From Ypsolopha sequella (lineage: Eukaryota; Arthropoda; Insecta; Lepidoptera; Ypsolophidae): DNA of 64,000 nucleotides. Position numbers and translations under genes: made by a program. The notes under the pieces are model-generated. The model did not search any database, had not been told where the DNA came from, and worked only from the letters and a program-made list of their open reading frames with translations. Numbering within the stretch: position 1 is the first letter of the stretch; each line of letters begins with the position of its first letter. Positions 9,253 to 56,850 of the stretch are shown one piece after another. The DNA lies in NCBI GenBank assembly GCA_934047225.1, contig OW204012.1, forward strand, positions 5,084,001 through 5,148,000. The letters are read 5' to 3'.

Positions 9253-9382
9253 ATTGTGATACTTGTGTCAAATTTGAAAAATTGTGATGAAGTTCAACTT
9301 CTTAACTACTAACACAAATTTTATTCGTTGAAAATATTTCGTTTTAATATTCTAAATTGTCCGATTGTAACAATTCTAACAG

Positions 9383-21036: not shown

Positions 21037-21150
21037 GAACTTATTTTGAATACTTTGCTTCATGGGGAGCCCAGACAACTGCGTTGCACTCTTAACTTAT
21101 TTTGAATACTTTGCTTCATGGGGAGCCCAGACAACTGCGTTGCACTCTTA
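21037..21150. repeat. Tandem duplication of about 57 bp
   Basis: ACTTATTTTGAATACTTTGC through TTGCACTCTTA occurs twice back to back with no visible differences. The minus strand of each unit encodes AVVWAPHEAKYSK of the LINE relic, so a small piece of ORF2 was recently duplicated. Confidence 0.75.
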
Positions 21151-25065: not shown

Positions 25066-25164
25066 ATGGGTTTATTCAATTGCATGCATCCAGAAGATGA
25101 AGACTCCGGAAATTCCAAACAAATTGATAGAGAGATCAAGCAATGGATCAGATCTTACAATGAC
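25066..25164 (+). CDS. Galphaf: Galpha exon 1
   Basis: The ATG sits in GAAAAATGG. The exon encodes [20 protein letters not shown] and then [13 protein letters not shown] (33 codons), followed by GTAAGT. The acidic N-terminus lacks the long basic helix of Gs. Gly2 and Cys6 are possible myristoylation and palmitoylation sites. Confidence 0.82.
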
Positions 25165-34100: not shown

Positions 34101-37100
34101 CTGGTACCTTTTTGGGCTTAAGGCCTGGGAGAGCATGATGGCCTAGAGCGGGTGGCATCTTGGGCCAAGTGCAGGTAGGTTCTTTGAGCCAACTGGGTGA
34201 CCACCAAAGGTCATGAAGTGAGAGAGACTGGGCAGACATGCCTCTGCTTGCACAGTCAGCAGGGTTGAGGTTCGTGGGCACATGCCTCCACGTATGGCTA
34301 GTTGAAGTAGCTGTGATCTTAGCCACTCGATTGGCCTCGAAAGTCTGTAATCGGTGAGGTGGGGTATTGAGCCATGCCAACACTATTGTGCTATCTGACC
34401 AGCATGTGTGTGTTTGAATGGCTATATGAGCTGACAGTTGGGCTGACACTCGAGTCATGAGCTGAGATAAAAGAGTCGCGGCTGACAACTCCAATTTCGG
34501 GATTGAGAGACGAGTCTTTATGGGTGCGACCTTGGACTTGCCAATGATTAGGTGTACATTGACATGTCCAGTGGTATTGCGCTCATGAAGGTAGATAACG
34601 GCACCAAAGCCAGCCTCTGATGCGTCCGCGAACCCGTGAAGTGAGTAAGTAGACGTGGGCTTATACTTACAAATGTGCCGAGGTAAACGGAGGTTTGAGA
34701 GCTGAGGAAGATCCTCTGAGATGTGTTGCCACTCTGTGTGGACTTCTTCAGAGATAGGCTCATCCCATCCTATTTTCAGAAGCCAAAGCTTCTGGAGAAG
34801 AATCTTTGCGCGGAAGATGACTGGAGTGACCCAGCCATTGGGGTCATAAAGAGACGCTACTGTACTGAGAATGGAGCGCTTTGTGACTTGAGCATGAGTG
34901 GGCAGAGAAATGCGATAAGTGAACTCATCAGTTTGAGGAATCCACTGTATTCCCAGAACCTTAATGGAATTAGAGTCGGGACTGAAGTCAAAGTCCTTGG
35001 GCATGTCGCACTGGTCATCTGGGAACCGTTCAAGGAGCTGAGGCGAGTTGGAGGTCCATTTACTGAGCTGGAAGCCACCTAGGGCGAGTAACTCGATCAG
35101 GTCGCTTTGGAGCGACTGAGCGGATTCCACAGAATCTGCACCTGAGAGAATGTCGTCCACAAATATTGATTTGCGGAGGATCTGAGCAGCGTGGGGGTAA
35201 CGATGACCTTCGTCATCAGCCAATTGGAGTAAAGTGCGGATGGCATGGTATGGGCTGGACCTTAATCCATATGTGACGGTATTAAGGGCATACGTGAGCA
35301 GGGGCTGGTCGGGTGAAGACCGCCAGAGAATGAGTTGAAAAGGTCTTTGCTCTGGGTGAATGAGTATATTTCTGAACATCATTCGGATGTCTGTGCTGAA
35401 AACTTGTGAGTGGATCCTGAAGGACATGATAATGTCAACAATATCTTGTTGAAGAGCTGGACCTGTATGGAGACAATCATTTAAATTGACGCCGTTTGAG
35501 CTTTTACAACTTCCGTCAAACACGCAGCGTAACTTTTCTGACCCTAGCTTGAATATGCCATGATGTGGGATATAGAAATGGGATTTATGAGCAAAGTTAT
35601 TGGGGTGACACGGCGACATATGTCCCAATTTTATGTAATCTGACATAAACTCTACGTATTTCGAGCGGAAGGGCGGGTTCGCTAGCAGCTTCTTCTCCAA
35701 ATTGAGAAACCTGCGTAACGCAATAGCGTGAGTGGAACCTAATGTCGGCGTGTTGTGCAGAAAGGGCAATGTAACCACATATTGACCTGATGGTTCACGA
35801 GTAGTTGTGGTGCGGAAAATGTCCTCACACTGATCCTCTAATGGGCTGGTATGCTTGTAGGTTTGGGGTTCCTCGGATTCCCAAAACCTCTCAAGACTTT
35901 TGTGAATGTCATGAGTGGAATGCTCTGAGTCCGTGTGAGAGCCGACAATGTGAACTGAGTTGACCTGATTCGTGGGTGAAGTATGTAAACTTTCGAAAGG
36001 TCCAATCAATGTAAAATCAAATATCGTGCCGAAGGCTATAGGCTTGCCAGGGCCGAGCGAAACCTTGGTTCCGTCTAACACTTGACCAAGAACGTCAGAT
36101 CCTAGTATTAGATCAACCGGAGCTGGTGTGTGATATTCTCGATCAGCAAGAGGAATCGGTGGGTGACCTGTTAACTGAGCGAGATCTGGAACCTTTTCCA
36201 ACGGTAGGTACCCAGTTACGTTCTTCAATATATGGGCTGTGGCCGTGATCATAGGTGTGTCACGGTGAGTAGGTCGGCATACAATTGTGATTGATGCCTT
36301 TGAGTCTTGTGTGTGCTGATTTCCAACTCCTGCGATTTTTAGAGATGTATGTTTTAATGGTAAATTTAAAATTGTGGCCATGCGCTGAGAACAAAGAGTC
36401 AGCATACTTCCACAGTCTAACAAGGCTCGTGCTGAGTGAAATTGACCATTTACGTCTGCTATTTTAAGTGAGACGGTTGGCAACAAAATTGGCGTGTTGG
36501 TGACGTTCACTACACGTTGTGCGGAGTTACAGTAATTTTCTGTTGGAGTTGAAGTCATTGAGTGACAATGAGCTGAGTGTGTATGTGATGAGTGAATGTG
36601 TGATGAGTGTGCTGAGTGTGCTGAGTGCTGGTCGTCCTCGCCTTCATAGTGCTCTGTTATTGTAGGTAGTCACTGTTGACTACCTACCCGAGACCTACTT
36701 GGCGATCGCGATTGAGTGGGCGAGTTGGGATGGGACGTATATGCCTGTGCAGCATGTGCCGAATGGTATTGAGGCTCATGCGCTGAGCGCTGTCTGGGCT
36801 GCTCACGTAGAGACGGAGGCAGCAAATGAGCAGATGATCGTGTCGGAGACATGGCCCCATGGCGATGCAGTGAAGTGTGGTGGTCAGACCGCCCACACTC
36901 CTTGCATGCACGTGTAGACCTGCACTCGTTCTCATAATGAGGACCCAAACAGCGTCGGCACCGGTTGCGTGAGTTCACAAAGTCCCACCGACCTTGAACC
37001 GGTTGGTTATTAAATCCTGGGCATGCGATGAGTTTGTGTCCCCTATTCCTGCAGTATGGGCATGGCATACCACCAGTAGGGGAAGAAGGTTGAGCCGAAT

Positions 37101-40100
37101 AATTCTGTCGGCGAGTGGGTGATGGGGATGATCGGGCCGAGTAAACTGGCGCTGTCTCAAATGCCATAAATGGTTGACGAATAGGACGGGGGGAGCGATT
37201 GTCCTGCCGAGGAGCTATGGGGCGGAACTCTTGATGAGCCTGGTAGGGCTGACGTGGAGTACCTCGAGTGGGCTGAAGCAGCTTATTGAGCTGAGCGAGC
37301 CTTTCTGACGGGCCGAGCCGTGATGAAGAAGGAGCCTCCTGTGACGCAAGGAACGATGACTCATTCTCCTTGCAGCGTGCGTGCTCTTCCAAAAACTCAA
37401 TGAGGTTCTTGAGCGTGGGCAGAGTTGCACGAGATCCGTACTTCCGCTCAAAAAGAGTGCGGAGCTCGCCTTGTAGTTTTCGCACCACCATGGACACGAA
37501 AACATAGTCAGAATCCTTCATGGGCAGATCCAGATTGCGGAGAGCGCTTTGCGCTGAGATAAGCGGAATTAAGAACGATGTGCGGATATCCGAGCGCATG
37601 TGGATGTGCGGAAGGTTCATTATAATGTCCACAAATCGGTCAATGAGTACGCGACGATTGTCGTAACGCTTGGTGAGAATTTCCATGGCTATGGGATAAT
37701 TCTCGTTAGTAGGGTAGAGGTGTTTCACCATATCATGTGCCTCACCCTTTAGGGCGCCTAACAAATAATGCAGTTTGACAGCATCCGAGACTGTAGCCAT
37801 CTCACTGACGAGGCTCCTAAAAACGGCAATAAATGAGGGCCATTCTTCAACGTTCGAATGAAACTCCGGTATGGGTATTTTTGGTAAAACACCAACGGGT
37901 GTACCTGAGCTGAGGGGTTGCGTCTTGTCCGGAAGAGCTGATTTTTCATTTAATTTTTCAAATGCCACTAGGATAGCATCATAGTTGCTAAGTGCCGACT
38001 GAAATTTTTTTGTGTAGGTTGCCTCAGTTTCGTCGGACAAATCCTCATCGTCAAGGATCTCATAATATACGTCCTCTAACTTAGTTTTAACGCTTTGTAT
38101 GTTTGCGTAACGAGCGGTGAAGTCCGCCACAGAATAAGTTTTTCTGTCGCCTGCCTCGACCGCCGCACCGATCTCCTTTAACAGAACTATCGCCTTTACG
38201 GCCTCACGAAACATCGCGGCTTGTGATTTCGAAGGCATCTTAATCTTGTTAAACTAGGTGGTTGATTACTAAGATAAAATACGCAACGAGTTTGAGCTGA
38301 ACTATAAGAGCAAACGTACAACTAAAATAATTGATGAGATAGATGAATAGAGCTGAGATACTTGCGCGGATGAAGTAACAATGACTATGTTCAAACGGAA
38401 CACGGAAATAAACACGACAGAGAAAGAGAAAAAAAAAAAAAAAATTTTTTTTTTTTAAACAACCTGTATATGAGCTGATACACCAACTTGGAACAACCTA
38501 TATGTGTACCACAAACAACAAGAACAGAGATGAGTTGAAAAAACAAATTGTTTACTATATTTGTGCTATATATATATACCCGGGTAAAAAAAGCAGACAA
38601 TAACACAAATAAACGGTCCGGCAATATATTACTGTAACACAAGATTACCGTAACATAAAATATCGGAAAGGGCTGAACTTGTTCACTAATTTAAACAACA
38701 CTTGTAAAAATACAAACAGCTATGTATGCACTGTTCACTTTTATGTTATTTGCCTTGAAATCATGTGCCGACAATACGCGTTGGTTCGTCGTCAAAAATT
38801 CTATTTATAGAATAAAATACCTACCTACTGCTTTGAGAGCGTAAACAAACAAAGAATGTATTTACCTAGCCGAAATCGGATCTAAATGAGCGGACAATCC
38901 AATGATGCTAATCAAGCTTTAATCAACGTAATAATACGTAACCGTAATAACGTGTGTACTTATGTACTCAACACACGTAACTTACGTATATATGTGACGT
39001 ATATAAGTGCACGAAATAAAGCAAATTTATACTCGCACCAAAAAATATCTCGCAAGATACCTACGAAAACTATCTTTGACAATGGGCAGATGTACACCTC
39101 TCCGCGGGCAAAAATTGGGTAGAAATAGGTAAATTGGGTCGGGTCGGGTCGGGTCGAGGGGTTTTAATAAAGAAATATAGTGGACTGTAATAAACAATTG
39201 GGCTGAATGGATGGGCCGGTTCTATACCGATAAATGGAATGTTCTAGGCGGCGGTTCTAATTACCTACCCGCAATAGGTATTCGAGACCACAAAATATTT
39301 TTTGCCGGGAAAGGGTGCAAAATATGTAACCGGGTGAAAATGGACTGTAGTAAATCGACGGGGGCTGGTTCAAACAAAGTTACGGGCCGGCGGATTTTGA
39401 AATTTTCTTGGATTGAAAATGGACTGTAATAAATCGACGGGGGCTGGTTCAGTAACGGTTCGAAGGGCCAAAATGTAACCGCTGGCTACAGGAATGCAGG
39501 GCTGATGGGATTTGACACGGGAGAATTGTGGAAAACAATGTGGGTGCACTGACCTGGTTGGAATGTTGATGGGCGAGCCGACGAATGCGCTGACAATGTG
39601 CCGCGTGGTGTACTCCTTGTCGGGCTGATGATGACAGGGCTGATCTTGGACAGGGATGTGCAGAATGTCTTGGAGTAATACACAGCACTGATATGATCAC
39701 AAGATACGGTAAATACGCGAGATTGGTTGTGGCGTCGCGAATGTGTGCACACACGTATTGTTCGGTCGACGGTTGCGGCGAAACAGAGTGAGACCAGCGC
39801 CCGCGCGCGCCTCGACCGGCGCGCGGCGGGGGGGGGGTGGTCGTCCGCGCATGCGCGCGCGAATCACGCGTCACGCTGTAGCGTGAACAATACCTAACTT
39901 TGTATAGTGCATGCGTTAGTGGAGAAAGTTTGAGGATTGAAAGTTGAGGTCCGTAACATACAAAGTGAAAAGAAATGGTCCTAGATGAGAGCCTTGGGGT
40001 ACGCTTACAGGGAGAAAAGAAGCATGTCTGCATATGCACTGACGTCGAAGGGTCGGTTATAAAAATCGCGATAATTCCAAAACTAAGCTGCGTTGCGTAA

Positions 40101-43100
40101 AGAACTTCAGTGAAAAGAGGGTGCACGAGCGTTGACTGTTCCAGTAACACTACACTCGAAAACACCCCTGATATCCCCTTGGGAATGTATGTTGTGACCA
40201 TATGATTCTAAACGTCAAAAACGAGCCATTCTTTACCATACAAAACCAACTAAAACTAATATCCAGTACCTAACATTGCAGCGAACGAGCGGAGAAGATG
40301 AAGTACATCCGACACAACATCCACGAGTCGATATTCGACATCGTCCGTCACATGGGCCCGCTCAGCATCGCACTGCAGAACCCTAAGAATGTCCAAGCCC
40401 AGCAATACATACTCAAGTGTGGGCCCGACGGACCGCCGGACTATTCTGAGGTGACATTTTTTTAACATTGGCAAGGCCCAGAGACAGAGACAACCTAAAT
40501 AATTGCGGCGTGTGCTTGAACAACGCTGTATGTTATATTATGGCGAAAGTTATCTAATGATGGAACAATGCAAATCTTTGTACCATACATCGTTGTTTAA
40601 CTGTATGCCAACGTTTGACTGCTGCTAAACTTAATTACTAGACTATTATGATTATAAAACAAAACTCAGTTGCAAAAAATGCCGGTGTTGACGGACAGCA
40701 TTTTTCCATCATTAGATAACTTTCGCCAAAATGTTACATACAGAGTTGTCCGAGCACACGCCTCAATTGTACAAGGTCTAAGAAGGTGTGTCATTTGTCC
40801 TAACATTCTCTTCTATGGCTGAAGCAATAATAACTGTAATGGTGCCCTCCAACACACACTATAACCCCGTTAAATGTTGATTGCGCTATGAATGACGCAA
40901 TAAACGACAAAAAAATTTTTTTTTATATAAATTAAGGCGTCATTTTTCTATTGTACTTTTTTTGTCTTCAGCATTGTAAATTTTGTATACACAACGTAAT
41001 TATTTGTTGTAAATGACAGGATTACTTCGACCACGTCAGATCATTGTGGCGCGACGGCGGCGTCAAGGAATGCTTCAGGAGAAACAACGAGTATCAACTG
41101 ATTGACAGTGCTGAATAGTAAGCTTTTCATTTTATATCTTCACTAGTGTTTTGCGTGGTGCGCGGGCTGCAGCAGCCCGCGCAAGTTGTAATTGTTCTGG
41201 GTTGTACTTATTTGTTGTTGTTTGTTGTACAGTTGATTAAACTTTTTCGTTTACGTGACAGGACTGAGGAGGACTCGAATTTAAAACACGTTTAGAAGCT
41301 GTTTTTTTTTTAATCTTATTTATTTTATAAGCCATACATCTTAAGAATAGAAGCTGAAATTGATTTGAAACAAATTATCAAACGACATTCAAGTAATGGG
41401 CAGAAGTCAATTGTATCACGAAATGTCATCGGTCATGATCGGGTGGGAAAAAAAGTCATCGGTCATGATCTGTTTTCAAAATTGTCATCGTCGTAACCGT
41501 AATACGTGTGGTAACTTTGATTCAATTGAAATGGACTAATTTTGCTATTGTTTCATTTTATATCTTCACTAGACTGCTGCCCGTATATAGCCCCCCACGG
41601 TCGGGGATCATATTTTGATGACGTACAAAAAGAATTGTCGTTTCAGTTGTACGCTCATGCATAAAATCGAATAAAAATTAAAATTACTTTATCTATCGCC
41701 CAACCTATGCTTTATAAATATTGATATATATATAGTGGTTTTTTGTAAATTTTAGAGATTAATTAATATAAGCAAGATATATTTCGAGTTCTTTTGGACT
41801 CGGCATCAGTTGCATTGACAATAGACATGACATTATAAATATAAAAGACATTTTTTTTAAGGTGTGGTAATGTTGTTTGTTAAGGCCTGGTCCAACCTAT
41901 ACTTCCTTTCCGTATTGAAATTTTGGTTAGTCAACATGTTTCAAAAATACAACAAATTACTCAGAAATCTTGTATTTTGTGCTCCAAAACATCTCATTTC
42001 CACACAGATTTTTCTCAAAAAACAACTCTTTTTTAAGAAATTGAATACATATTGACCCCGTGGTAGTTTATAAATATTTTAAAAATGCAGTGGTTTAGTA
42101 TGTAGGCTAAATAGGATAGCAATAAAACGTTAAGAGCTAGGACACGAAATCGCGGTAAAAAGTTACCGTCTAGCCTTAAGAAAACACAGGGAAATAAGGG
42201 TTGGGTTTACTTAAATTCCATAAAAAAATACACTTGAATAAAATAAAAATATAGGAATAAGGAATATAGGTCTTTGGCCCGCGGGTCGTAGTTTGGAGAC
42301 CCCTGACCTATTGCGAGGATCATGAATGTATTATTTGTAAGTTATTTTCTTCATCCATCCATCCATCAGCCTAGTTCGTCCACTGCTGGACATAAGCCTT
42401 TCCAGGACTTTGCCACTCCCGGCGGTCATCCTGGAAGAATTGCCCATACTCACACACGCTGGGCAGGCGGGTTGGTGAGCGCGGTGCCGGAACCCTCTCA
42501 CTAGTGACGCCGTTGCCCGTCACCAGTCTGTTCATATAAGGCCCGGCTATTAGGGATGGATATACCGCCATCCATCGGTCCCAGGCATGGTGGGCCTCCT
42601 GGTTTTTTGCCTGTGAGCTGTCCTCTTCCCCACCTTATTACTTCGAGGGGGTCTCCTAAAATGGCGTATAAACTCTGAAAAAAAATTGAAATTATGCTAT
42701 GGGAATTCTACAAAGCACACGACCTTACATTTCAGTTTCCTGGACAGAGTAGACCTCATAGAGAAGGCGGACTACGTCCCCTCGGACGCGGAAGTGCTGA
42801 GGTGCCGACAGAAGACCACCGGCATTCAGAAGATTGAGTTTAAAGTGAAGGTACGTTATGTACATAATAGGTCCGATTCAGAGTTTTGTCACTACAACAT
42901 CGAAATAATTTTCGATGCACTACAATCAAACTTCATTCACAATTAATTTGAATGAAAGACTGATCTCAATAACTTAAATATTATATTAAACTTCTTCCTT
43001 CAAACATTAACTTTGTTTTCCTATTTTGCTAAATTCTATTTCTACGAGTGGCCTGAATCATAGACCGATATTGCTTACATGATTACTCTTAAAAGATCCT

Positions 43101-46100
43101 TCGTCAAATATTGTATATGTCGTAAGAAGAGATCCCTTGTCAAACAAAATTAAAATTAAATAAACGTCAAATTTAAAAACAAAAATAGTTCACATACGAA
43201 GAGAAATATGCAAAGTGTTGAATTTCTTTCTATTTTCAATGTTGTCTAAAGATTTTGCAAAACTAACTATCTAAATCATATCATATCAATAAATGAAGCG
43301 TGTTTTTCTAGATATTAGAGTAAAAAAACTATATTTTTTTTAAATAAATATTGGTTGCAGAGGTGATGAAAATTTGCACATTATTGTCTAAGCTCGTCAT
43401 TCTGCGTATTAAAAACAGAAAACTGTTAGTCCCCCGGCCGCATGCTTAAGGGGCTCCACAATGCTAAACATCAGTTTTGTATTTAATGGATTCAGTTCCG
43501 TCAATGTAGATGGTAAAAATTTGAAAAAAATATGGCATGTGTTTTGACTCAAGACTAATTACAAGATTAATTACACTTTATAAATAAACATACTTTCAAT
43601 CTTCTATTACTCATATTACTTTTAAAAAAACATGAATTTCACGAAAAAAGCGATTCAGTTTCCGTGTTTCAAAACCGATTGAAATGAAACTAACACACGC
43701 AGATACTAAGGAATAAAAACCATCTTTATTACATAAAGAAATTATGGTTACTGCCATAATGTAGCCACGATTTCAAAATAACTGAAGTTTTGCGTGCGCG
43801 GCATCTGATTAGAGCAGGATAGAGAGCTAAAAAATAAACGCGTTTGAGCAGGACTGAATTTTAGCATAGTGCAGCCCCTTAAATAGGAATTTTGAAAAAA
43901 ATCATTTTGCCATCCCGGCCCCTTAGGCTCAGTCCGACGCTCGCTGTATGGTACTATCAGAGAATATAAAGTATTGGTACTGTCCACTGTACCTACCCTG
44001 AGTTCTGCACTCAATACACCCTAATGTAATATATGTCGTAATATATAACGTAATATAATAAAATATGTCAAATTGGACACTCTGATTCCTCACGTAAACC
44101 GCTAGGGACGCTGTGAACTTTCTCTTATAAATATTTTATGCAGACGTTAACGTGTGTCGAGTGCAAAACTCAGGTAACCCTAAAGTCGGCGGCGCTCACA
44201 CTTCGTTAGCTCATGCATAACTGTCAGTGATGCAAGCCAGAATCGGACCGCTCGTCTAACTAAGAAGGCGGCTGTAAATATAGCCACAGATCAGCGTTGA
44301 CGTTGAGTGGGGGAGGAGTGACAACTAACCTACTTCACGTCCGCCATCTACTTTTCCATTTTCCATGAATCATGAATAACTGATTAATGTTTCACGATTT
44401 CAGCTTTGGTTCGATAGTTCTACACCATTGACTGAATCATCTCTTCAAGTGACCGCACATTTTTGTTGCACGTAATACATTGTCTATGGTTTGTCCCTAG
44501 GTACCCAAGTCGATGCAGGGCGGGGTGCAAGAGTTCTGGATGTTCGACGTGGGGGGTCAGAGGGGGGAGAGGAAGAAGTGGATACAGGTATGTCGCTCTT
44601 ATCTCTTGTGGATACGGGTTATTGTTGAGCGACTTGAGAAAATTACTTAGTTTTTAATTTTTTTTATACTATAGTCTGTAAAATATTGCTTGAGCCTTGT
44701 GACAGCAGGACAGTGCTATACAATTTGTATTTCTAACTCTCTTTCTCATGTTCAAATATGTATAGCGCTGACAGCTGTCAAAGGGCTCAAGCTATATTAT
44801 ACGGACTATAGTATAGTTCGCCCCGGACTGTAAACTCGCGGTGTACCTCCTACATAGACAATAAAGCCTAGATTGACGTCTATTGTTGAACATCTTGCGT
44901 ACAAATAATTCTGTCAACAATCGAAACGGGATACTGCATTCCTATTGGCTCTTACAATCTTACGTATAGCGCCACAAACTTATCTTTCCCGAAGACGAAG
45001 ACTCTAACGTAATGAATATAGAAGCCATTTTGGTTTGGCCTACCGAAACATATAATTTTGGAGTGGCGAATTGTATCTGCTGGTTCAGTCAGATGTGTTG
45101 ACAGAAATCGGTCGCCTATTATGAGGAGTCTGTAGGCTGTATTCGTCTATGACCTCCTACAACTCTATATCTCGCCAACCCTTTTTCCGATTTGGCTCAT
45201 GTTCGAACTTTAAAATAATTTTTGTCTTATTTAAATACTCGCCTACCAAATTTCATGACGTTCCGATCAACGATACTCGAGTTATCGTCGGACAAACAAA
45301 CATACATACATATACATACATGCATACAAACAAACGCCGGATTGTTCAAGTAGACTCTAAGAACTTCGCTCGCTTTTTCAACTAGTATTCTAAACAAGTA
45401 AAATTCACTGGCCTATTTACCCTAGGGCACAAATGGCCATGGCCTGGGGCGGCAGGCTGCGAGAGGCGGCACAAGCTATTGAGAATTAGCTATTCTTAAT
45501 ATCTACCTATAGAATCTGTCTTGGCAAAATCCGTTAATCATGACAGTGTCATTGAAGAAATTTGTAACTAATTTGGCCATCAGAAAAAAATGATAATATT
45601 GAATAAAGTGTTTGCATGGCCTTTTTAGTTTTTTTCATTCATTATCACCATTCTTAGCCCACATCAACACTGTTGGATTTCACTTAATTTTATAGTTAAT
45701 TGAAATATTTTTGCTTTTTTCTCGTTATTTTATGGGGCGGCAAACCTAACAGGCCCAGGGTGCTAAATCTTAAAATAGGTTCATTTTGACGTCCTCAGTT
45801 TGTCTTTACAATCGAAATTCCCTGCGTTCCGATTCACGACATAATCGATTATATCGCGTCTGACACTTTGTTTCGCAAAATGATACTGGCCACAAATAAA
45901 AGCCGCTGGCCTGAAGCCTGAAAAGCCTTGCACTTTTAATAATTGTAATTTTTAATATTTCCTGTAATAAATTTCTTCTTATATAATTTATACTTGTTTT
46001 GTTATTTAAATACATAATATCAGGTAGTAGAAAACGAATCGTTCGCAACGAGAAAAAATGGGTTTTCTTACCCTCGGAATGTAAGCTTTCGACGTTCGCC

Positions 46101-49100
46101 TTCGGCTCACGTCGAAACTAGCTTCATTCCTCGGGTAAGAAAATCCGCCATTCTATACTCGTCACGAAATATACTATTGTTTTTATGGAGGGGGTAACCT
46201 CTGTAACAACTGAACCGATTTGGGAAATTGTATAATCCAGGTGTTCGAGGGCATCCACGCGATCTGGTTCATGGTGGCGTGCAGCGACTTCGACCAGACT
46301 CTCAGAGAGGACACTTCGCAGAACAGACTGCAGGAGGCGCTCGACTTGTTCGAGGATGTCTGGCAGAGCAGGTACTTGTGTGGGTCCTAGCTCACCACCG
46401 TCCACGTACCCCGAGGGTTCGAGGGCATCCACGCGATCTAGTTCCTGGTGGCGTGCGGCGATTGCGACCAGACTCTCAGAGAGGACACCTCGTAGAACAG
46501 ACTACAGGAGCCGCTTAAAAATTATTTTGTCTTATTTACTCGCCTATCAAACTTCATGACGTTCCGATCAACGATACTCAAGTTATCGTCGAACAAACAT
46601 TCATACATACATATAAACGCCGAATTGTTCAAGTAGACTCGGAGAACTTCGCTTGCTCGTTCAATTAGTTTAATGTTTTCTAAAGGTGGTAGAGCTGATG
46701 CTGGGCTCGACTGTGGAGGTACCACCATCTTTCTTGGAGACCACCTCGAAGTAATTCGGGGGAGTGTAAGAGGACAGCTCACAGGCAAAATACCAGGAGG
46801 CTCACCATGCCTGGGACCGATGGATGGCGGTATATCCATCTCTAATAGCCGGGCCTTATATGGAACAGACTGGTGACGGGCAGCGGCGTACACTGGTGCG
46901 AGGGTTCCGGCACCGCGCTCACCAACCCGCCTGCCCAGCGTGTGTGAGTATGTGCAATTCTTCCAGGATGACCGCCGGGAGTGGCAAAATCCTGGAAAGG
47001 CTTAATTATGTCCAGCAGTGGACGTACTAGGCTTGTGGATGGAATAGACCATTACCATTGTTTCCTTAATTGACGTAACCCATTGTCCCACAGATTTCTG
47101 CTAGAAGCCGGCCTCATTGTGTTCTTGAACAAGCAAGACCTTCTGCAACAAAAGCTGTCGCAAGGGAAGAGCATCGAGCGGTACTTCCCGCAGTACCAGC
47201 AGTGTACCATACAGGGGGACGAGTACACGCGCACCAAGATGTTCATTAGAACCATGTTCGCTGTAAGTAGCGGAATATACAGGAGCATCGAGCGGTACTT
47301 CCCGCAGTACCAGCAGTGTACCATACAGGGGGACGAGTACACGCGCACCAAGATGTTCATAAGAACCATGTTCCCTGTAAGTAGTGGAGTATATAGGAGC
47401 ATCGGGCGGTACTTCCCGCAGTACCAGCAGTGTACCATACAGGGGGACGAGTACACGCGCACCAAGATGTTCATAAGAACCATGTTCCCTGTAAGTAGTG
47501 GAGTATATAGGAGCATCGGGCGGTACTTCCCGCAGTACCAGCAGTGTACCATACAGGGGGACGAGTACACGCGCACCAAGATGTTCATTAGAACCATGTT
47601 CGCTGTAAGTAGTGGAGTATACAGGAGCATCGAGCGGTACTTCCCGCAGTACCAGCAGTGTACCATACAGGGGGACGAGTACACGCGCACCAAGATGTTC
47701 ATTAGAACCATGTTCGCTGTAAGTAGCGGAGTATACAGGAGCATCGAGCGGTACTTCCCGCAGTACCAGCAGTGTACCATACAGGGGGACGAGTACACGC
47801 GCACCAAGATGTTCATTAGAACCATGTTCGCTGTAAGTAGTGGAGTATACAGGAGCATCGGGCGATACTTCCCGCAGTACTAGCAGTGTACCATACAGGG
47901 GGACGAGTACACGCGCACCAAGATGTTCATTAGAACCATGTTCGCTGTAAGTAGCGGAGTATACAGGAGCATCGAGCGGTACTTCCCGCAGTACTAGCAG
48001 TGTACCATACAGGGGGACGAGTACACGCGCACCAAGATGTTCATTAGAACCATGTTCGCTGTAAGTAGCGGAGTATACAGGAGCATCGAGCGGTACTTCC
48101 CGCAGTACCAGCAGTGTACCATACAGGGGGACGAGTACACGCGCACCAAGATGTTCATTAGAACCATGTTCGCTGTAAGTAGCGGAGTATACAGGAGCAT
48201 CGAGCGGTACTTCCCGCAGTACCAGCAGTGTACCATACAGGGGGACGAGTACACGCGCACCAAGATGTTCATTAGAACCATGTTCGCTGTAAGTAGCGGA
48301 GTATACAGGAGCATCGAGCGGTACTTCCCGCAGTACTAGCAGTGTACCATACATACAGGGGGACGAGTAAACGCGCAACAAGATGTTCATTAGAACCATG
48401 TTCGCTGTAAGTAGCGGAGTATACAGGAGCATCGAGCGGTACTTCCCGCAGTACTAGCAGTGTACCATACAGGGGGACGAGTACACGCGCACCAAGATGT
48501 TCATTAGAACCATGTTCGCTGTAAGTAGCGGAGTATACAGGAGCATCGAGCGGTACTTCCCGCAGTACTAGCAGTGTACCATACATACAGGGGGACGAGT
48601 AAACGCGCAACAAGATGTTCATTAGAACCATGTTCGCTGTAAGTAGCGGAGTATACAGGAGCATCGAGCGGTACTTCCCGCAGTACTAGCAGTGTACCAT
48701 ACAGGGGGACGAGTACACGCGCACCAAGATGTTCATTAGAACCATGTTCGCTGTAAGTAGCGGAGTATACAGGAGCATCGAGCGGTACTTCCCGCAGTAC
48801 CAGCAGTGTACCATACAGGGGGACGAGTACACGCGCACCAAGATGTTCATTAGAACCATGTTCGCTGTAAGTAGCGGAGTATACAGGAGCATCGAGCGGT
48901 ACTTCCCGCAGTACTAGCAGTGTACCATACAGGGGGACGAGTACACGCGCACCAAGATGTTCATTAGAACCATGTTCGCTGTAAGTAGCGGAGTATACAG
49001 GAGCATCGAGCGGTACTTCCCGCAGTACCAGCAGTGTACCATACAGGGGGACGAGTACACGCGCACCAAGATGTTCATTAGAACCATGTTCGCTGTAAGT

Positions 49101-50773
49101 AGCGGAGTATACAGGAGCATCGAGCGGTACTTCCCGCAGTACCAGCAGTGTACCATACAGGGGGACGAGTACACGCGCACCAAGATGTTCATTAGAACCA
49201 TGTTCGCTGTAAGTAGTGGAGTATACAGGAGCATCGAGCGGTACTTCCCGCAGTACCAGCAGTGTACCATACAGGGGGACGAGTACACGCGCACCAAGAT
49301 GTTTATTAGAACCATGTTCGCTGTAAGTAGTGGAGTATACAGGAGCATCGAGCGGTACTTCCCGCAGTACCAGCAGTGTACCATACAGGGGGACGAGTAC
49401 ACGCGCACCAAGATGTTTATTAGAACCATGTTCGCTGTAAGTAGCGGAGTATACAGGAGCATCGAGCGGTACTTCCCGCAGTACCAGCAGTGTACCATAC
49501 AGGGGGACGAGTACACGCGCACCAAGATGTTCATTAGAACCATGTTCGCTGTAAGTAGTGGAGTATACAGGAGCATCGAGCGGTACTTCCCGCAGTACCA
49601 GCAGTGTACCATACAGGGGGACGAGTACACGCGCACCAAGATGTTTATTAGAACCATGTTCGCTGTAAGTAGTGGAGTATACAGGAGCATCGAGCGGTAC
49701 TTCCCGCAGTACCAGCAGTGTACCATACAGGGGGACGAGTACACGCGCACCAAGATGTTTATTAGAACCATGTTCGCTGTAAGTAGCGGAGTATACAGGA
49801 GCATCGAGCGGTACTTCCCGCAGTACCAGCAGTGTACTATACAGGGGGGCGAGTAAAAGCGCACCAAGATGTTTATTAGAACCACAGAAGAAAAGGAGCA
49901 TCGAGCGGTCATTTTCCGTAGCCGAAGGGTGCAAACGGGACCCTATTACTAAGCCTCCGCTGTCTGTTTGCCTGTCTCTCCGTCAGTCTGTCACAAGGTC
50001 TACACTACAGCTTCAGCCGTTATAGGTAGCCAGTTGGAATTTTCACAGAATACGTTTTACTATGTGCCTAAAAAATTAAAAAAAAAATTGAAAGCTAAGG
50101 GGGTATACAAAAAGCCTTGAAAAACCTTCGAAAAACTAGCTTTTTTTAACGTTTTGTAATTTACCATGTTTTAGGGTTCCGTGCCCGTATTGTGTGGTGG
50201 TACGGAGTCCGACTTGCAATTGGCCAAATTATTTCTAGTTTCATTACTTCTTGTAAAAAAATATATATATACTAAAATCACATTGTCCAAGGACTGAGTA
50301 TGGAAAAAGAAATTTACTATATGGTGGAGTGCAACTTTATAATAAATTACCAAATAACATAAAAGAATGTGAATTGATATCTACTTTTAAAACTAAGCTC
50401 AAAACTTACATTGCAACAAACGTGTTTTAAAGTAAAATATTACCTACCAACATATATGTACACTGTCGACAAATCATAGAATTCACTAAATGTTATCTAA
50501 GCAAAATCTCATTTTAAGTGAACTATGTTCTTATGAGAATAAAGATCATTAACCAACTTGTACAATCTCCCCCAGGACGTAACAACAAAGAAACGCGAGC
50601 GCAAAAAGCTGTCGACGTCAGCGGAGAAGTTCATAGTGATGGAAGGGTTCAAGCCTCGCGAGTGCTTCTTCCACTTCACAACCGCCACTGACACCGACAA
50701 CGTGAGGACTGTCTTCCGGGACGTGCACAAGATTATACTGACGCACATCCTTAGCCAAGTCGGTCTCTACTGA
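25066..50773 (+). CDS. Galphaf: G-protein alpha subunit, Gs-like, probably Galpha-f
   Basis: Heterotrimeric G-protein alpha subunit, a GTP switch on the inner plasma membrane. Nine exons (25066-25164, 26732-26826, 40282-40450, 41020-41117, 42736-42850, 44501-44587, 46241-46371, 47094-47262, 50576-50773) join in phase to 386 codons. The N-terminus MGLFNC allows lipidation. P-loop GTGESGKTT is at 41-49, switch [10 protein letters not shown] at 176-184, switch [14 protein letters not shown] near 208-219, NKQD at 277-280, and TTATDTDN in the last exon. The C-terminus LSQVGLY differs from Gs, Gi, Gq and G12. The ADSAEY-like block [20 protein letters not shown] is Gs-like. The divergent sequence and length fit the insect-specific Galpha-f. 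Family membership is certain and the subtype inferred. Introns hold a 13-kb retroelement and an exon-derived tandem array. Confidence 0.85.
25165..26346. other. Galpha intron 1, mostly unremarkable
   Basis: AT-rich intron with no gene or clear element recognised before the foldback at 26347. Confidence 0.4.
26347..26559. repeat. Foldback element in Galpha intron 1
   Basis: AGATTATCAAAAAATATTGG then ACACGTATTTTTT, and the inverse ending GATAATCT. The arms are about 50 bp. The centre carries GTGATGTCAC and GTGACGTCACG. Confidence 0.7.
26732..26826 (+). CDS. Galphaf: Galpha exon 2 (P-loop)
   Basis: It follows a T-rich tract and CAG. It encodes [20 protein letters not shown] and then [11 protein letters not shown]. 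The donor GTAACT is used, and a BEL LTR starts only 23 nt into the intron (26850). Confidence 0.88.
26850..27266 (-). repeat. BEL 3' LTR
   Basis: It starts TGTAACCGCTGGCTACAGG and ends GCGTGAACA on the plus strand. It is GC-rich near 27175-27245, with an 11-G run. It is nearly identical to 39474-39889. Confidence 0.92.
27248..27913 (-). pseudogene. pol: BEL/Pao integrase C-terminal part
   Basis: It resumes on the minus strand with [20 protein letters not shown], then GALHE with the third catalytic Glu. It continues through [31 protein letters not shown] and [15 protein letters not shown] to [20 protein letters not shown]. This is the typical end of Pao integrases. It stops inside the 3' LTR at 27248. 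The 5.3-kb LINE separates it from the rest of Pol. Confidence 0.88.
27916..27950 (-). repeat. LINE 3'-terminal TTGAA pentamer run
   Basis: About seven units of ATTCA on the plus strand (TTGAA-type on the element's strand). This marks the LINE 3' end, where target-primed reverse transcription began. Confidence 0.8.
28195..31119 (-). CDS. LINE ORF2, endonuclease and reverse transcriptase
   Basis: About 974 aa. The N-terminal APE endonuclease has [32 protein letters not shown] and [11 protein letters not shown]. The central RT has [56 protein letters not shown] and the catalytic FADDVSVF. The C-terminus has [10 protein letters not shown] and [20 protein letters not shown]. The frame has no ATG at its start: it opens at a GTG that overlaps the ORF1 stop (GTGACTAA). 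Start by reinitiation or frameshift is therefore likely. Confidence 0.9.
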   Translation of the reverse strand: MTKNTRKPNQKRISLQAGITVAHINIQSLNDRKQALLETWLHSDEGRSIKVLCLTEHHRLKCDLERMSFRGFSLASSFCRKNRNSRGGVCIYVHKSLQFDEIPSIKKFSISNIFEVCGINVSGDYIICAYRPKTIKNDNFIDNVENILNHIISNKLNRNFLLCGDFNVNLLVKGRETNEFQCLLKSFDAKPFVNEPTRITEHSSTCIDNIISNTNLRNIKVIELGLSDHSLQYATLDIKLKPNSGRTYKQVRDINKSNSDELKTFLSSVNWDPVYKNLDSNQSFNIFHDMLLSAFDRFCPLKTVQVDKAYSKPKWITPGIKKSCETKRELFIELKHSANKTVLTQNYKRYCSILHQVVAYAKKKENEGLILKSNNKIKTTWNIVNRTVKGQKCQKVESFIGLSDGVKTIKNDLEAPDLFNDYLTTKKSSRGENELNTIELPRYQKNSMFITPITKPELIKLVSNLNNKRSCGYDGLPITIIKDIIEVIADTLVHLINLSIVTGSFPERLKKAHIIPLHKGGSRLDIRNYRPIALLPTLSKIYEKFYSNRLTNFLLKYDILSNNQFGFQKCKSTVDAVFDMMDFVADSLNGKSNVLTVLLDLSKAFDYVDHQVLECILNRYGIRGNCLNWLKSYLTNRRQSVILPTIDSKNKTLSSAESLTAETMQGVPQGSVLGPLLFILYINHLPEIIKNKITVFADDVSVFFEFERKNTENLSDEITHTINTVVKWLQVIGLKTNADKTKMVHFRNYNTPRVELDVTVENTSIALVDQAKFLGIFADEYMNWKMHIEALAGKLSSFCYALRCLSKITTIHAALQAYYAFFHSRLLYGLALWGGSVDIQKIFVLQKRCVRILNGVKSNRVSCRDLFVKLKIHTVTALFIIELCKLVQRFPEKFPISSERKCSRLKERFKYDIQKKSCRTTSYSRNTSQMAICVYNKLPFHIKRLSGDRFLKSLKQYLLLMCPYSLNEFYQNCE
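31112..32665 (-). CDS. LINE ORF1, PHD finger plus coiled coil
   Basis: 517 aa. An N-terminal zinc finger of PHD type ([20 protein letters not shown], then HYQC, then WKCESC) occupies residues about 3-52. A coiled coil lies near 135-195 ([20 protein letters not shown]). The C-terminal domain has [17 protein letters not shown] and [11 protein letters not shown], resembling the esterase-like domain of some CR1-group ORF1 proteins. Its likely role is RNA binding for retrotransposition. It ends NVFFRD* in an 8-T run overlapping ORF2. Confidence 0.85.
   Translation of the reverse strand: MDCHVCRKTIALSDLLKCTACKKLFHYQCLNIASAKYSALYPTKKQWKCESCANVCKSRGNLKKNTQTRGVPCSAGKATSSSDRTLTATESIETEKIYDDQPSPQRRYNSMEDLSAYALDRSSSFLDSTARSLPNLIQMNDSLVQNLKEQIFSLTMDLNSAHQEITNLNEENNILKLDVQELNKKITLLMKINTSITTSTPKQQIALNSSSAHLKSKKRIMFEKSESTPKPSAIPKRKIHNADVNDSIVLTPDHSVNTSEIEEKKIDAPVLPSHDKSGSLLQKSKRKHPPISRKNKPLIHVLGDQGARGTAGKLWDLRNNNWNNNYTVSAFIKPYAMPLEILKDFKELITRVGEDDIIILILGSNNSPSNLKYEVQSILQNRDVQNVVFLCETKEFSKEFNSTIYKYQQNRLVELKSELNLASKLNIEIDYLRYKEEFITNFGKLIRNQTAQQTPGILKVGTIPYFFHRQEQKLKEKFVEISSKDPKVGTIPYYFREKTATTKATGAIPKMNVFFRD
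33151..36558 (-). pseudogene. pol: BEL/Pao Pol, truncated by a LINE within integrase
   Basis: Protease with LLDCGSM (about 46-52, Cys in place of the usual Ser/Thr). RT with [15 protein letters not shown] and the catalytic FVDDIL. RNase H with [17 protein letters not shown] and [11 protein letters not shown]. Integrase with a zinc motif ([15 protein letters not shown] and CIRCFRC) and the first two catalytic acids ([20 protein letters not shown]). Genuine Pol sequence ends at 33212 after NNDAIT. The last residues to the stop at 33151 come from the LINE. The frame also extends 37 codons upstream of the first Met to the Gag stop. The missing integrase end lies at 27248-27913. Confidence 0.9.
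36670..38238 (-). CDS. gag: BEL/Pao Gag protein
   Basis: 522 aa. The N-terminal half is helical ([20 protein letters not shown]) and leads into the Pao-type gag domain ([20 protein letters not shown], then [12 protein letters not shown], then [15 protein letters not shown]). A basic Pro/Ser/Arg stretch precedes Cys/His clusters ([44 protein letters not shown]) that should bind nucleic acid. The stop is UGA followed by CUA. The downstream pol frame continues in the same register, so readthrough could link Gag and Pol. Confidence 0.88.
   Translation of the reverse strand: MPSKSQAAMFREAVKAIVLLKEIGAAVEAGDRKTYSVADFTARYANIQSVKTKLEDVYYEILDDEDLSDETEATYTKKFQSALSNYDAILVAFEKLNEKSALPDKTQPLSSGTPVGVLPKIPIPEFHSNVEEWPSFIAVFRSLVSEMATVSDAVKLHYLLGALKGEAHDMVKHLYPTNENYPIAMEILTKRYDNRRVLIDRFVDIIMNLPHIHMRSDIRTSFLIPLISAQSALRNLDLPMKDSDYVFVSMVVRKLQGELRTLFERKYGSRATLPTLKNLIEFLEEHARCKENESSFLASQEAPSSSRLGPSERLAQLNKLLQPTRGTPRQPYQAHQEFRPIAPRQDNRSPRPIRQPFMAFETAPVYSARSSPSPTRRQNYSAQPSSPTGGMPCPYCRNRGHKLIACPGFNNQPVQGRWDFVNSRNRCRRCLGPHYENECRSTRACKECGRSDHHTSLHRHGAMSPTRSSAHLLPPSLREQPRQRSAHEPQYHSAHAAQAYTSHPNSPTQSRSPSRSRVGSQQ
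38239..39455 (-). other. BEL 5' leader between PBS and gag
   Basis: About 1.2 kb of untranslated leader. It contains a GGGTC pentamer run (39137-39156) and two related stretches with GGACTGTAATAAA and ATCGACGGGGGCTGGTTC (39351-39375, 39420-39450). No ORF with recognisable similarity. Confidence 0.6.
39456..39470 (-). other. Candidate primer binding site of the BEL element
   Basis: Three bases inside the 5' LTR, the minus strand reads TGGCCCTTCGAACCG. It starts with TGG, as expected for pairing with a tRNA 3' CCA end. The tRNA species was not determined. Confidence 0.45.
39474..39889 (-). repeat. BEL 5' LTR
   Basis: It is the partner of 26850-27266. On the element's strand it begins TGTTCACGCTACAGCGTGA and ends GGTTACA. 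It should contain the element's promoter. Confidence 0.92.
39895..40200 (-). pseudogene. LINE RT fragment in Galpha intron 2
   Basis: The minus strand near 40015-39945 encodes [20 protein letters not shown], a LINE RT motif block. The surrounding frame is broken. The BEL element inserted at its edge. Confidence 0.6.
40282..40450 (+). CDS. Galphaf: Galpha exon 3 (helical domain)
   Basis: The acceptor is CATTGCAG and the donor GTGACA. It encodes [20 protein letters not shown] through [20 protein letters not shown] to [11 protein letters not shown], the alpha-helical domain. It joins exon 2 across a phase-2 boundary. Confidence 0.88.
40497..40778. repeat. Foldback in Galpha intron 3
   Basis: GCGGCGTGTGCTTGAACAAC then GGCGAAAGTTATCTAATGAT, and the inverse (ATCATTAGATAACTTTCGCC) ending GCACACGCCTC. 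The arms are about 65 bp. Confidence 0.7.
41020..41117 (+). CDS. Galphaf: Galpha exon 4
   Basis: The acceptor is ATGACAG and the donor GTAAGC. It encodes [20 protein letters not shown] and then [13 protein letters not shown] (Tyr completed by exon 5). [11 protein letters not shown] matches the Gs/Gq consensus. Confidence 0.88.
41118..42352. other. Galpha intron 4, first part
   Basis: A short direct repeat GTCATCGGTCATGATC occurs at 41425 and 41455. No exon or known element was recognised. Confidence 0.35.
42353..42660 (-). repeat. YVQQWTN-tail repeat, copy 2
   Basis: Inverted copy with a CATC run at its left edge (the GATG tail) and TTCGTCCACTGCTGGACATA, extending to TCGAGGGGGTCTCC. Same family as 9383. 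Confidence 0.7.
42736..42850 (+). CDS. Galphaf: Galpha exon 5 (switch I)
   Basis: The acceptor is ATTTCAG and the donor GTACGT. It encodes [20 protein letters not shown] and then [18 protein letters not shown]. It includes the switch-I arginine, which is the cholera-toxin target position in Gs, and the Mg-binding threonine. Confidence 0.9.
42851..43445. other. Galpha intron 5, first part
   Basis: AT-rich, with no exon, TIR or retroelement motif recognised. Confidence 0.35.
43446..43882 (+). repeat. TTAA-flanked MITE, complete copy
   Basis: TTAA (43446-43449) then GGGGCTCCACAATGCTAAAC, and at the right TTTAGCATAGTGCAGCCCC then TTAA (43879-43882). TIRs are about 23 bp with mismatches. The TTAA target fits piggyBac-like or Kolobok-like mobilisation. 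A second copy is at 59712-60124. Confidence 0.8.
44501..44587 (+). CDS. Galphaf: Galpha exon 6 (switch II)
   Basis: The acceptor is TCCCTAG and the donor GTATGT. It encodes [20 protein letters not shown] and then RGERKKWIQ. The catalytic Gln of DVGGQ is kept. Gly replaces the usual Asp or Ser after GQR. Confidence 0.9.
44666..44816. repeat. Short foldback element in Galpha intron 6
   Basis: TATACTATAGTCTGT then GCTTGAGCC and GACAGC, mirrored as GCTGTC, GGGCTCAAGC and ACGGACTATAGTATA. The arms are about 40 bp. Confidence 0.7.
44853..45151 (+). repeat. MITE family B (CATAGACAATA), complete copy with 8-bp TSD
   Basis: The left end is CATAGACAATAAAGCC and the right end GGCTGTATTCGTCTATG. The 8-bp TSD ACCTCCTA lies at 44845-44852 and 45152-45159, a hAT-like length. 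It inserted into an older repeat (45152-45385) related to 46515-46670. Confidence 0.82.
45152..45385 (+). repeat. Dispersed repeat with CATACATACATA run, copy 1
   Basis: Shares TTCATGACGTTCCGATCAAC and GTTCAAGTAGACTC with 46515-46670 in the same order. Includes a tetranucleotide CATA run. Class unknown. Confidence 0.6.
45409..45770. repeat. Old GC-rich-ended repeat
   Basis: GCCTGGGGCGGCAGGCTGCG at one side and TGGGGCGGCAAACCTAACAG at the other, with an AT-rich middle. Similar phrases occur at 24243-24320. Low-confidence family assignment. Confidence 0.4.
46241..46371 (+). CDS. Galphaf: Galpha exon 7
   Basis: The acceptor is AATCCAG and the donor GTACTT. It encodes [20 protein letters not shown] and then [20 protein letters not shown] ending WQSR. 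A decayed duplicate lies 44 bp downstream. Confidence 0.9.
46415..46515 (+). pseudogene. Decayed duplicate of Galpha exon 7
   Basis: It closely matches 46244-46344 (GTTCGAGGGCATCCACGCGA, GACCAGACTCTCAGAGAGGA). TGG became TAG at 46439-46441, and a second CAG became TAG in TCGTAGAAC. It has no 3' end and no donor. It lies 44 bp after the true exon and cannot be used productively. Confidence 0.85.
46515..46670 (+). repeat. Dispersed repeat with CATACATACATA run, copy 2
   Basis: Parallel to 45200-45385 (ACTCGCCTATCAAACTTCAT, TTCAAGTAGACTCGGAGAAC), shorter and diverged. Confidence 0.6.
46683..47045 (+). repeat. YVQQWTN-tail repeat, copy 3
   Basis: Runs from AAGGTGGTAGAGCTGATGCT to TCCAGCAGTGGACGTACTAG. 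Ends 48 bp before the exon 8 acceptor of the Galpha gene. Confidence 0.7.
47094..47262 (+). CDS. Galphaf: Galpha exon 8 (NKQD), parent of the tandem array
   Basis: The acceptor is CCCACAG and the donor GTAAGTAG at 47263. It encodes [20 protein letters not shown] through [20 protein letters not shown] to [15 protein letters not shown] gives guanine specificity. Its last 94 bp plus 20 bp of intron are the unit amplified to 49909. Confidence 0.9.
47169..49909 (+). repeat. Exon-intron tandem array, 24 units of 114 bp
   Basis: Each unit contains the last 94 bp of Galpha exon 8 (from GAGCATCGAGCGG to TTCGCT) plus 20 bp of intron (GTAAGTAGCGGAGTATACAG). Starts are at 47169, 47283, 47397 and so on to 49799, with a partial 25th at 49896. 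Two units (48309, 48541) are 118 bp through an extra ACAT. The 114-bp period is 38 codons, so the plus frame reads through until a CAG-to-TAG change in the unit at 47853. Seven units carry that TAG. 23 units keep the GTAAGTAG donor; the last has lost it. Units differ by a few point changes each (for example GGGCGG, TTCCCTGTAAG, TTTATTAG). Confidence 0.97.
49910..50232 (-). repeat. CCGGCCAAGTGCGAGTC-family repeat, inverted copy
   Basis: CCGAAGGGTGCAAACGGGAC at the left and TTTAGGGTTCCGTGCCCG, then GTCCGACTTGCAATTGGCC, at the right. It borders the exon array directly. Confidence 0.65.
50285..50520 (+). mobile_element. 5'-truncated LINE tail
   Basis: Encodes [20 protein letters not shown] and then [11 protein letters not shown] with a TAA at about 50430. 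This is a LINE ORF2 C-terminus, with a short AT-rich 3' part. Located just before Galpha exon 9. Confidence 0.65.
50576..50773 (+). CDS. Galphaf: Galpha exon 9 (C-terminus)
   Basis: The acceptor is CCCCCAG. It encodes [20 protein letters not shown] through [20 protein letters not shown] to [15 protein letters not shown] and TGA. TTATD is the guanine-contact G5 motif. The C-terminal tail is the receptor-selectivity region, and no Cys at -4 is present, so it is not a pertussis-toxin substrate type. A basic insert KKRERKK follows the junction. Confidence 0.9.
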   Translation, partial: DVTTKKRERKKLSTSAEKFIVMEGFKPRECFFHFTTATDTDNVRTVFRDVHKIILTHILSQVGLY

Positions 50774-56280: not shown

Positions 56281-56504
56281 AAATATATATGTAAATATAC
56301 ATATCTACCAGTAACATAAAATGTTTTTAATTTTTCATTATTTCTAACTCATTTAAAGCTTCCGAGGTTGAGAAATAATAATTAAGGGAAATTTAAAACT
56401 AACACATGACAACACTTAAGAGATAAAAATTTAACATATAAATAAAAAGCGTCATCACGCGCAAACCTCCATACAAACGCTGTCTACAAATTGTGGGGTG
56501 TCTC

Positions 56505-56850
56505 ATCCATCATCCTAGTTCGTCCACTGCTGGACATAAGCCTTTCCAGGAAGTTGCCACTCCCGGCGGTCATCCTGGAAGAATTGCCCATACTCACACA
56601 CGCTGGGCAGGCGGGTTGGTGAGCGCGGTGCCGAAACCCTCGCACCAGTGACGCCGCTGCCCGTCACCAGTCTGTTCCATATAAGGCCCGGCTATTAGGG
56701 ATGGATATACCGCCATCCATCGGTCCCAGGCATGGTGGGACTCCTGGTTTTTTGCCCGTGAGCTGTCCTCTTACTCCTCCCCCGAATTACTTCGAAGGGG
56801 TCTCCAAGTAAGATGGTGGTACCTCCACAGTCGAGCCCGGCATCAGCCCA
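56505..56850 (-). repeat. YVQQWTN-tail repeat, copy 4
   Basis: CATCATCC tail at the left, TTCGTCCACTGCTGGACATA, and the 5' end at AGCCCGGCATCAGC. A 40-bp palindrome, GCCCACATATCACGGTAT and its inverse (56846-56884), follows immediately. Confidence 0.72.

What the first reader, a model, noticed from the sequence alone, without database searches (positions are those of the whole stretch)
47169..49909. Massive tandem amplification of a coding exon end with its splice donor inside a Galpha gene
The last 94 bp of the NKQD exon plus 20 bp of intron recur 24 times in one intron. The period is 114 bp, exactly 38 codons. 23 copies keep an intact GTAAGTAG donor. A spliceosome therefore meets a long ladder of identical donors before the single true acceptor at 50575. 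Correct protein needs the first donor. Use of a later donor without a stop would insert n x 38 residues in the Ras-like domain. From the seventh unit on, a CAG-to-TAG change would truncate. Sequence seen directly: unit, donors, stops. Inference: possible splice regulation, a mis-splicing hazard or a U1 sink. I know of no such arrangement in this family.
Basis: partly seen in the sequence, partly recalled or inferred. Interest (0 to 1): 0.88.

Follow-up and report, generated by a model that had tools for sequence, protein, structure and literature searches.

The report
Exon-end minisatellite with 23 splice donors
In a moth or butterfly G-protein gene, the end of one exon together with its splice signal has been copied head-to-tail into a ladder of 23 identical splice donors, most likely a recent repeat expansion that the gene tolerates and a natural test of how cells choose between identical splice sites.

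Summary
Window 47169-49895 holds 23 full copies plus one truncated copy of a 114-bp unit (94 bp of exon end, 20 bp of intron), followed by a 16-bp stub. The 23 full copies all keep GTAAGTAG; unit 1 is the genuine exon end. The host is an intact 9-exon lepidopteran G-alpha-f gene (25066-50773, 386 aa). Donors 1-6 read in frame (386-576 aa); donors 7-23 all stop after residue 527.

I found no sign that the copies are maintained for function. Their exon parts carry stops and a 4-bp insertion, and donor invariance is what chance gives (P = 0.43). Neighbouring units resemble each other, as expected of minisatellite turnover. Best reading: a young exon-end minisatellite, tolerated because exon definition favours donor 1 (inferred). 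RNA folding predicts leakage, if any, into donors 2 and 3, whose donor hairpin is weakest.

A precedent exists: the human IFI6 (6-16) minisatellite supplies repeated donors, and two downstream ones are reported to be used. This is a new variant of a known kind. Splicing itself could not be tested.

The parts
25066..50773 (+). G-alpha-f gene, 9 coding exons: 25066-25164, 26732-26826, 40282-40450, 41020-41117, 42736-42850, 44501-44587, 46241-46371, 47094-47262, 50576-50773; 386 aa, no internal stop
   Evidence: orthologue tblastn, splice-site joining and translation, Pfam G-alpha 9.1e-104, homologues
47094..47262 (+). exon 8 (NKQD exon), 169 bp; its last 94 bp are the coding part of array unit 1
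47169..49798 (+). 23 full tandem units of 114 bp (two of 118 bp); each is 94 bp of exon end plus 20 bp of intron start
47263..47270 (+). genuine splice donor of exon 8 (GTAAGTAG), donor 1
47377..47498 (+). span from donor 2 to donor 3 (donors at 47377 and 47491); the two with the weakest predicted donor hairpin (-2.5 against -3.8 or -5.7 kcal/mol)
47881..47883 (+). first in-frame TAG (unit 7); ends every product from donors 7-23 and intron retention after residue 527
48309..48658 (+). units 11-13; units 11 and 13 carry a 4-bp insertion and shift the frame
49779..49786 (+). last intact donor (donor 23)
49799..49909 (+). truncated unit 24 (97 bp, donor lost) and 16-bp stub of a further copy
49914..49970 (+). 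copy of a dispersed repeat close to the 3' end of the array; other copies at 15193-15250 and 2413-2470
50576..50773 (+). exon 9, preceded by the acceptor of intron 8 (pyrimidines 11 of 16)

Best explanation
This is a young minisatellite made from an exon-intron boundary. One duplication joined intron position +20 back to a point 94 bp inside exon 8, and repeated unequal exchange or slippage then expanded the 114-bp unit to about 24 copies inside intron 8 of a G-alpha-f gene (array and its anatomy shown; route inferred). The gene most likely still works because the spliceosome mainly uses donor 1: exon 8 has its own good acceptor, both flanking introns are long (722 and 3313 bp), donor 1 gives a normal 169-nt exon and is transcribed first, so exon definition favours it (inferred). 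Later donors are mostly passive. Occasional use should fall on donors 2 and 3, adding 38 or 76 residues in frame at the end of helix alpha-4 (prediction). Use of donor 7 or later gives a truncated product or decay.
For: Array structure. Intact 386-aa gene with a conserved junction: 20 of 22 homologues that I chose for alignment have no insert or loss there, and none of the 22 has a repeated segment. Among 8 variable exon-part columns, 3 are synonymous, 3 missense and 2 nonsense, plus a 4-bp insertion, so the copies are not held as protein. Donor columns: 0 of 8 variable, P = 0.43 by chance. Adjacent units resemble each other more than in shuffled order (5 of 5000 shuffles reach the observed lag-1 value, 180 lag 2, 33 lag 3), the mark of multi-unit exchange. 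In human IFI6 a citing paper states that two downstream repeat units are used as donors, giving three mRNAs. The donor hairpin (-5.7 kcal/mol) is stronger than at any of 29 other GTRAGT sites on this strand of the window; it is -5.7 in 15 units, -3.8 in 6 and -2.5 only in units 2 and 3, whose donors rank first and second in predicted accessibility in all five folding settings.
Against: No RNA data were available, so donor-1 use is not shown. Classic work on duplicated splice sites (Reed and Maniatis 1986, title seen in a reference list; content recalled) found that the site nearest the partner tends to win, which here would favour donor 23 and kill the protein. Donor 1 itself sits in the full hairpin and its predicted accessibility ranks 23, 21, 3, 23 and 10 of 23 under the five settings, so folding favours donors 2 and 3 over it. 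3 of 8 exon-part changes are synonymous against 52 of 279 expected from random changes of the consensus, a slight excess that could hint at constraint, too few to judge. The array may be too young for the gene to have decayed even if splicing is broken.
Confidence: 0.7

Rival explanations
1. The ladder is a working splice switch: use of donors 1-6 makes length-variant G-alpha-f proteins (+0 to +190 residues after alpha-4), use of later donors feeds decay, and copy number tunes the output.
For: Donors 1-6 all keep the frame into exon 9 and donors 7-23 all meet a stop. In IFI6, two downstream donors of a comparable array are reported to be used. Donors 2 and 3 have the weakest hairpin and rank first and second in predicted accessibility.
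Against: A 38-codon period is expected 1 in 3 by chance. Two units are 118 bp and break the frame. No clear constraint on exon parts or donors. No hit covering more than 42% of a query made of the exon and its first units, among 43 hits (7994 candidates scored).
Confidence: 0.1
2. The array disrupts the gene: splicing goes mainly to late donors or fails, so this allele is a partial or full loss of function.
For: 22 competing donors of identical sequence lie nearer the acceptor, and 17 of 23 donors give a stop after residue 527.
Against: The rest of the coding sequence is intact and aligns with orthologues throughout. The coding part of unit 1 has no difference from the unit consensus, though this also fits mere youth.
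Confidence: 0.1
3. Assembly artefact: the copies were created or multiplied by mis-assembly.
For: Cannot be excluded without reads; the 23 full copies are 97.8% identical on average.
Against: Ordered unit variants (2-3, 11/13, 18-23), two 118-bp units and a degenerate terminal unit are typical of real arrays and not of a duplicated read path.
Confidence: 0.06
4. U1 sink or U1 cover: the repeated GTAAGTA sites bind U1 and either titrate it or protect intronic polyadenylation-like motifs (AATAAA at 50341 and 50538, ATTAAA at 50075) from premature cleavage.
For: 23 sites of 7-nt U1 match (U1 sequence recalled); the last is 562 and 759 nt before the two AATAAA motifs.
Against: U1 is far more abundant than one transcript's sites (recalled); donor 1 alone would lie similarly near those motifs without the array; no conservation evidence.
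Confidence: 0.03

Closest known systems
[quoted passage not shown] title seen in reference lists; use of two downstream repeat units read as a passage of PMC4526556; paper itself not held)
   Same: Tandem repeat at an exon-intron boundary in which units carry a splice donor; several donors can serve one acceptor.
   Different: IFI6 unit is 12 bp with about 26 copies (recalled); here the unit is 114 bp and duplicates 94 bp of coding exon with the donor. Insect gene, 23 donors, and stops make all products past donor 6 truncated.
Reed and Maniatis 1986 duplicated splice-site constructs (reference seen; content recalled)
   Same: Identical splice sites with identical exon sequence placed in competition for one partner.
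   Different: Man-made pairs; here a natural 23-fold series in a conserved gene.
Intragenic minisatellites and VNTRs in introns (recalled kind)
   Same: Period, copy number, likeness of neighbouring units and degenerate edge units.
   Different: The unit is exon-derived and carries a splice donor in register.
Intron gain by tandem duplication of exon segments (recalled)
   Same: Tandem duplication within a gene multiplies splice signals.
   Different: Donors are multiplied without good acceptors; the unit-boundary acceptor (TATACAG) has a poor pyrimidine tract, 5 of 16 against 6-11 of 16 for the gene's eight real acceptors, so new introns are unlikely.

Membership tests
Minisatellite providing multiple splice donors (IFI6 type) | tandem array starting at an exon-intron boundary with a donor in each unit | tested here: met
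   23 of 23 full units carry GTAAGTAG; unit 1 is the exon end
Minisatellite providing multiple splice donors (IFI6 type) | more than one donor actually used in transcripts | not testable with these tools
   no RNA for this species; no hit covering more than 42% of the exon-plus-units query among 43
Minisatellite providing multiple splice donors (IFI6 type) | donor steps keep the reading frame (IFI6: recalled) | tested here: inconclusive
   true for donors 1-6; later donors meet a TAG and two 118-bp units shift frame
Minisatellite providing multiple splice donors (IFI6 type) | short unit (12 bp in IFI6, recalled) | tested here: not met
   unit 114 bp; hence filed as a variant, not a copy, of that kind
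G-alpha-f (G(f) alpha subunit) | G-alpha family match and nearest relatives named G(f) | tested here: met
   Pfam PF00503 9.1e-104; nearest named hits are lepidopteran G(f) alpha subunits, best 81% identity
Protein-coding tandem repeat | units under constraint as protein | tested here: not met
   2 nonsense columns and a 4-bp insertion among 8 variable exon-part columns; 7 of 23 units carry TAG
Array of cassette (poison) exons | usable acceptor before each unit | tested here: inconclusive
   AG present but pyrimidine content 5 of 16; one 94-nt cassette (unit 2 tried) would shift frame and stop after residue 352

The most novel reading that the evidence does not exclude
A copy-number-variable donor ladder that acts as a splicing rheostat: donors 1-3 (up to 6) make G-alpha-f proteins lengthened in 38-residue steps at the alpha-4/beta-6 region, later donors divert transcripts to decay, and the weakened donor hairpin in units 2-3 sets the leak.
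Probability: 0.08. Interest if true: 0.85.

Novelty: new variant of a known kind. Interest (0 to 1): 0.5.

Why it matters
Splice-site choice between identical donors has, as far as I recall, mostly been studied with man-made duplications. Here a natural series of 23 identical donors, each with nearly the same 94 nt of exon upstream, competes for one acceptor in a conserved signalling gene. Counting junctions per donor would measure directly how distance, order of transcription and exon length weigh in vivo. It also shows how an exon end can become a minisatellite without the coding sequence being lost, and that gene annotation across such arrays needs care.

Tried and rejected
U1-sink and telescripting readings: no support beyond motif counting. 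Cassette-exon reading: unit-boundary AG has a weak pyrimidine tract. 'Donor 1 is uniquely open' was suggested by one folding setting and dropped: rank 23, 21, 3, 23 and 10 of 23 in five settings, that one included. Selection on donors: 0 of 8 columns variable but P = 0.43. A first unit comparison was wrong because the 4-bp insertion was not removed; one search replaces it, and only one search's count of possible changes in the consensus (212 missense, 52 synonymous, 15 nonsense) is used. A viral-contig scan for the junction sequence gave 0 matches. Hyposmocoma P0052 (421 aa) was checked for an extra unit: its extra length is elsewhere.

Paper searches: ten in all (one search was rejected for a character). 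None of them named G-alpha, so I cannot say from them that such an array in a G-alpha gene is unpublished; they looked for minisatellites, tandem duplications or duplicated splice sites with splice donors, and for IFI6. One search's wording (without prime marks) could hardly match and found nothing. Most subscription journals are not in the library. Turri 1995 was not held.

Full report
What is there. The window carries a complete G-alpha-f gene of a lepidopteran. Orthologue tblastn and splice-site joining give nine coding exons from 25066 to 50773 and a 386-aa protein with no internal stop. Pfam scores it as G-alpha at 9.1e-104. The best hits are lepidopteran G(f) alpha subunits, led by Pectinophora at 81%. 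The window species itself was not identified: no hit among the 120 listed (of 1681) is above 81%.

The array. From 47169 the last 94 bp of exon 8 plus the first 20 bp of intron 8 repeat head to tail. There are 23 full units, then a 97-bp unit that lost its donor, then a 16-bp stub at 49894-49909. A dispersed repeat begins at 49914. Unit 1 is the exon end itself, so 22 donors are extra. All 23 are GTAAGTAG. The junction probe finds 23 matches, all in the array, and none in 100 shuffled windows. Mean pairwise identity of the 23 units is 97.8% after removing a 4-bp insertion from units 11 and 13. 20 of 22 donor intervals are 114 bp and two are 118 bp.

Consequences for the protein. Joining each donor to the acceptor at 50575/50576 gives 386, 424, 462, 500, 538 and 576 aa for donors 1-6; donors 7-23 all stop after residue 527, as does intron retention. 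The exon 8/exon 9 junction falls after MFA, aligned with the end of helix alpha-4 of G-alpha-olf (alignment; helix naming recalled). I aligned 22 homologues of the 120 listed with the window protein: 19 with lepidopteran names, two from unnamed sources (P0011, P0029) and the caddisfly Arctopsyche. Identity to the window protein is 70-81% for the first 21 and 52% for the caddisfly. 20 of 22 cross this junction without an insert or loss. Choristoneura P0001 has an extra stretch and Manduca P0005 a diverged end; both begin as if the annotated gene model read into the intron (V-S and V-I after the junction; inference). Two further proteins seen but not aligned, P0003 (Euphydryas) and P0017 (Choristoneura), also have an altered stretch there. 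None of these shows the repeated segment. A search with exon 8 plus the first units gave 43 proteins among 7994 scored candidates, and the longest coverage was 42% of the query, so no protein with the repeated units appeared. Introns of relatives could not be examined.

Is it maintained? Eleven columns vary among 23 units. In the exon part, 8 columns vary: 3 synonymous, 3 missense and 2 nonsense, plus the 4-bp insertion; 7 of 23 units carry the TAG. Random changes of the consensus would be 52 of 279 synonymous and 15 of 279 nonsense, so there is a slight excess of both; the numbers are too small for more. The eight donor columns do not vary, but with 11 variable columns that happens by chance 43% of the time. 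Units next to each other are more alike than in shuffled order (5 of 5000 shuffles at lag 1, 180 of 5000 at lag 2, 33 of 5000 at lag 3), which fits exchange of small blocks of units. The variants therefore look like neutral minisatellite turnover. The coding part of unit 1 is identical to the consensus; its single difference is intronic. So either the array is young or the exon and the array exchange sequence. If they exchange, the TAG units threaten the gene.

Splicing. Donor 1 has a middling U1 match for this gene: -7.0 kcal/mol, fifth of eight donors, range -4.5 to -8.3 (U1 sequence recalled). A feature I did not expect: the donor lies in a hairpin, CGCT-GTAAGT-AGCG. The 18-nt window folds at -5.7 kcal/mol. 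The gene's seven other donors give 0 to -1.0; 0 of 29 other GTRAGT sites on this strand of the window reach it, and 32 of 3595 GT sites do. This was found after the fact and is a prediction only. The hairpin is -5.7 in 15 of 23 units, -3.8 in 6 (C103T) and -2.5 in units 2 and 3 (G92C with C103T). The donors of units 2 and 3 rank first and second of 23 in predicted accessibility in all five folding settings (0.016-0.028; the best of donors 4-23 reaches 0.005-0.017). Donor 1 ranks 23, 21, 3, 23 and 10, so folding alone does not favour it. If leakage occurs, donors 2 and 3 are the candidates, and both are in frame.

Mechanism. Two rules pull apart. Exon definition and order of transcription favour donor 1: exon 8 would be 169 nt, against 283, 397 and so on, with long introns on both sides. 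Proximity to the acceptor favours donor 23 (rules recalled from the splicing literature). Because the gene is intact throughout, I judge donor 1 dominant. This is inference; no RNA was available.

What is known. The human interferon-induced gene IFI6 (6-16) has a minisatellite that provides multiple splice donors (Turri et al. 1995; I saw the title in reference lists, and the paper is not held). PMC4526556 states that two downstream repeat units are used as donors, giving three mRNAs (passage read). The unit length of 12 bp and 26 copies there are recalled. The present array is the same idea with a roughly tenfold longer, exon-containing unit in an insect gene. Hence: new variant of a known kind.

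Limits. No reads, RNA or related genomes could be consulted; the genome search for the own assembly was unanswered seven times. The searched literature excludes most subscription journals, and no search named G-alpha.

Noticed in passing
46417-46515: A decayed partial copy of exon 7 (91% identical to 46243-46341) lies in intron 7, with two stops (TGG to TAG, CAG to TAG). It directly abuts a repeat shared with 45208-45386. A second exon of the same gene was thus also copied into its own downstream intron.
   Followed up: partly
46678-47043: Dispersed repeat with copies at 56504-56847, 9374-9717 and 42358-42656 (88-93% identity).
   Followed up: no
28195-32677, minus strand: Two long ORFs (978 and 521 aa) that look by eye like a LINE with reverse transcriptase, inside intron 2 of the gene.
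   Followed up: no
33151-38253, minus strand: Two long ORFs (1172 and 527 aa) that look by eye like a BEL/Pao-type retroelement, also in intron 2 (13.5 kb).
   Followed up: no
47101-49982, minus strand: Antisense open frames of 450, 492 and 342 aa across the array; expected from a period divisible by three and not evidence of genes.
   Followed up: partly
21038-21154: Perfect tandem duplication of a 56-bp unit (2.1 copies, 100% matches), probably very recent.
   Followed up: no
47257-47274 and the same place in each unit: The exon 8 donor lies in a stable predicted hairpin (-5.7 kcal/mol), unlike the gene's other donors (0 to -1.0).
   Followed up: yes
P0041 (Spodoptera, protein database): An annotated protein that by eye joins the G-alpha-f C-terminal part to several histones, probably a faulty gene model.
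   Followed up: no
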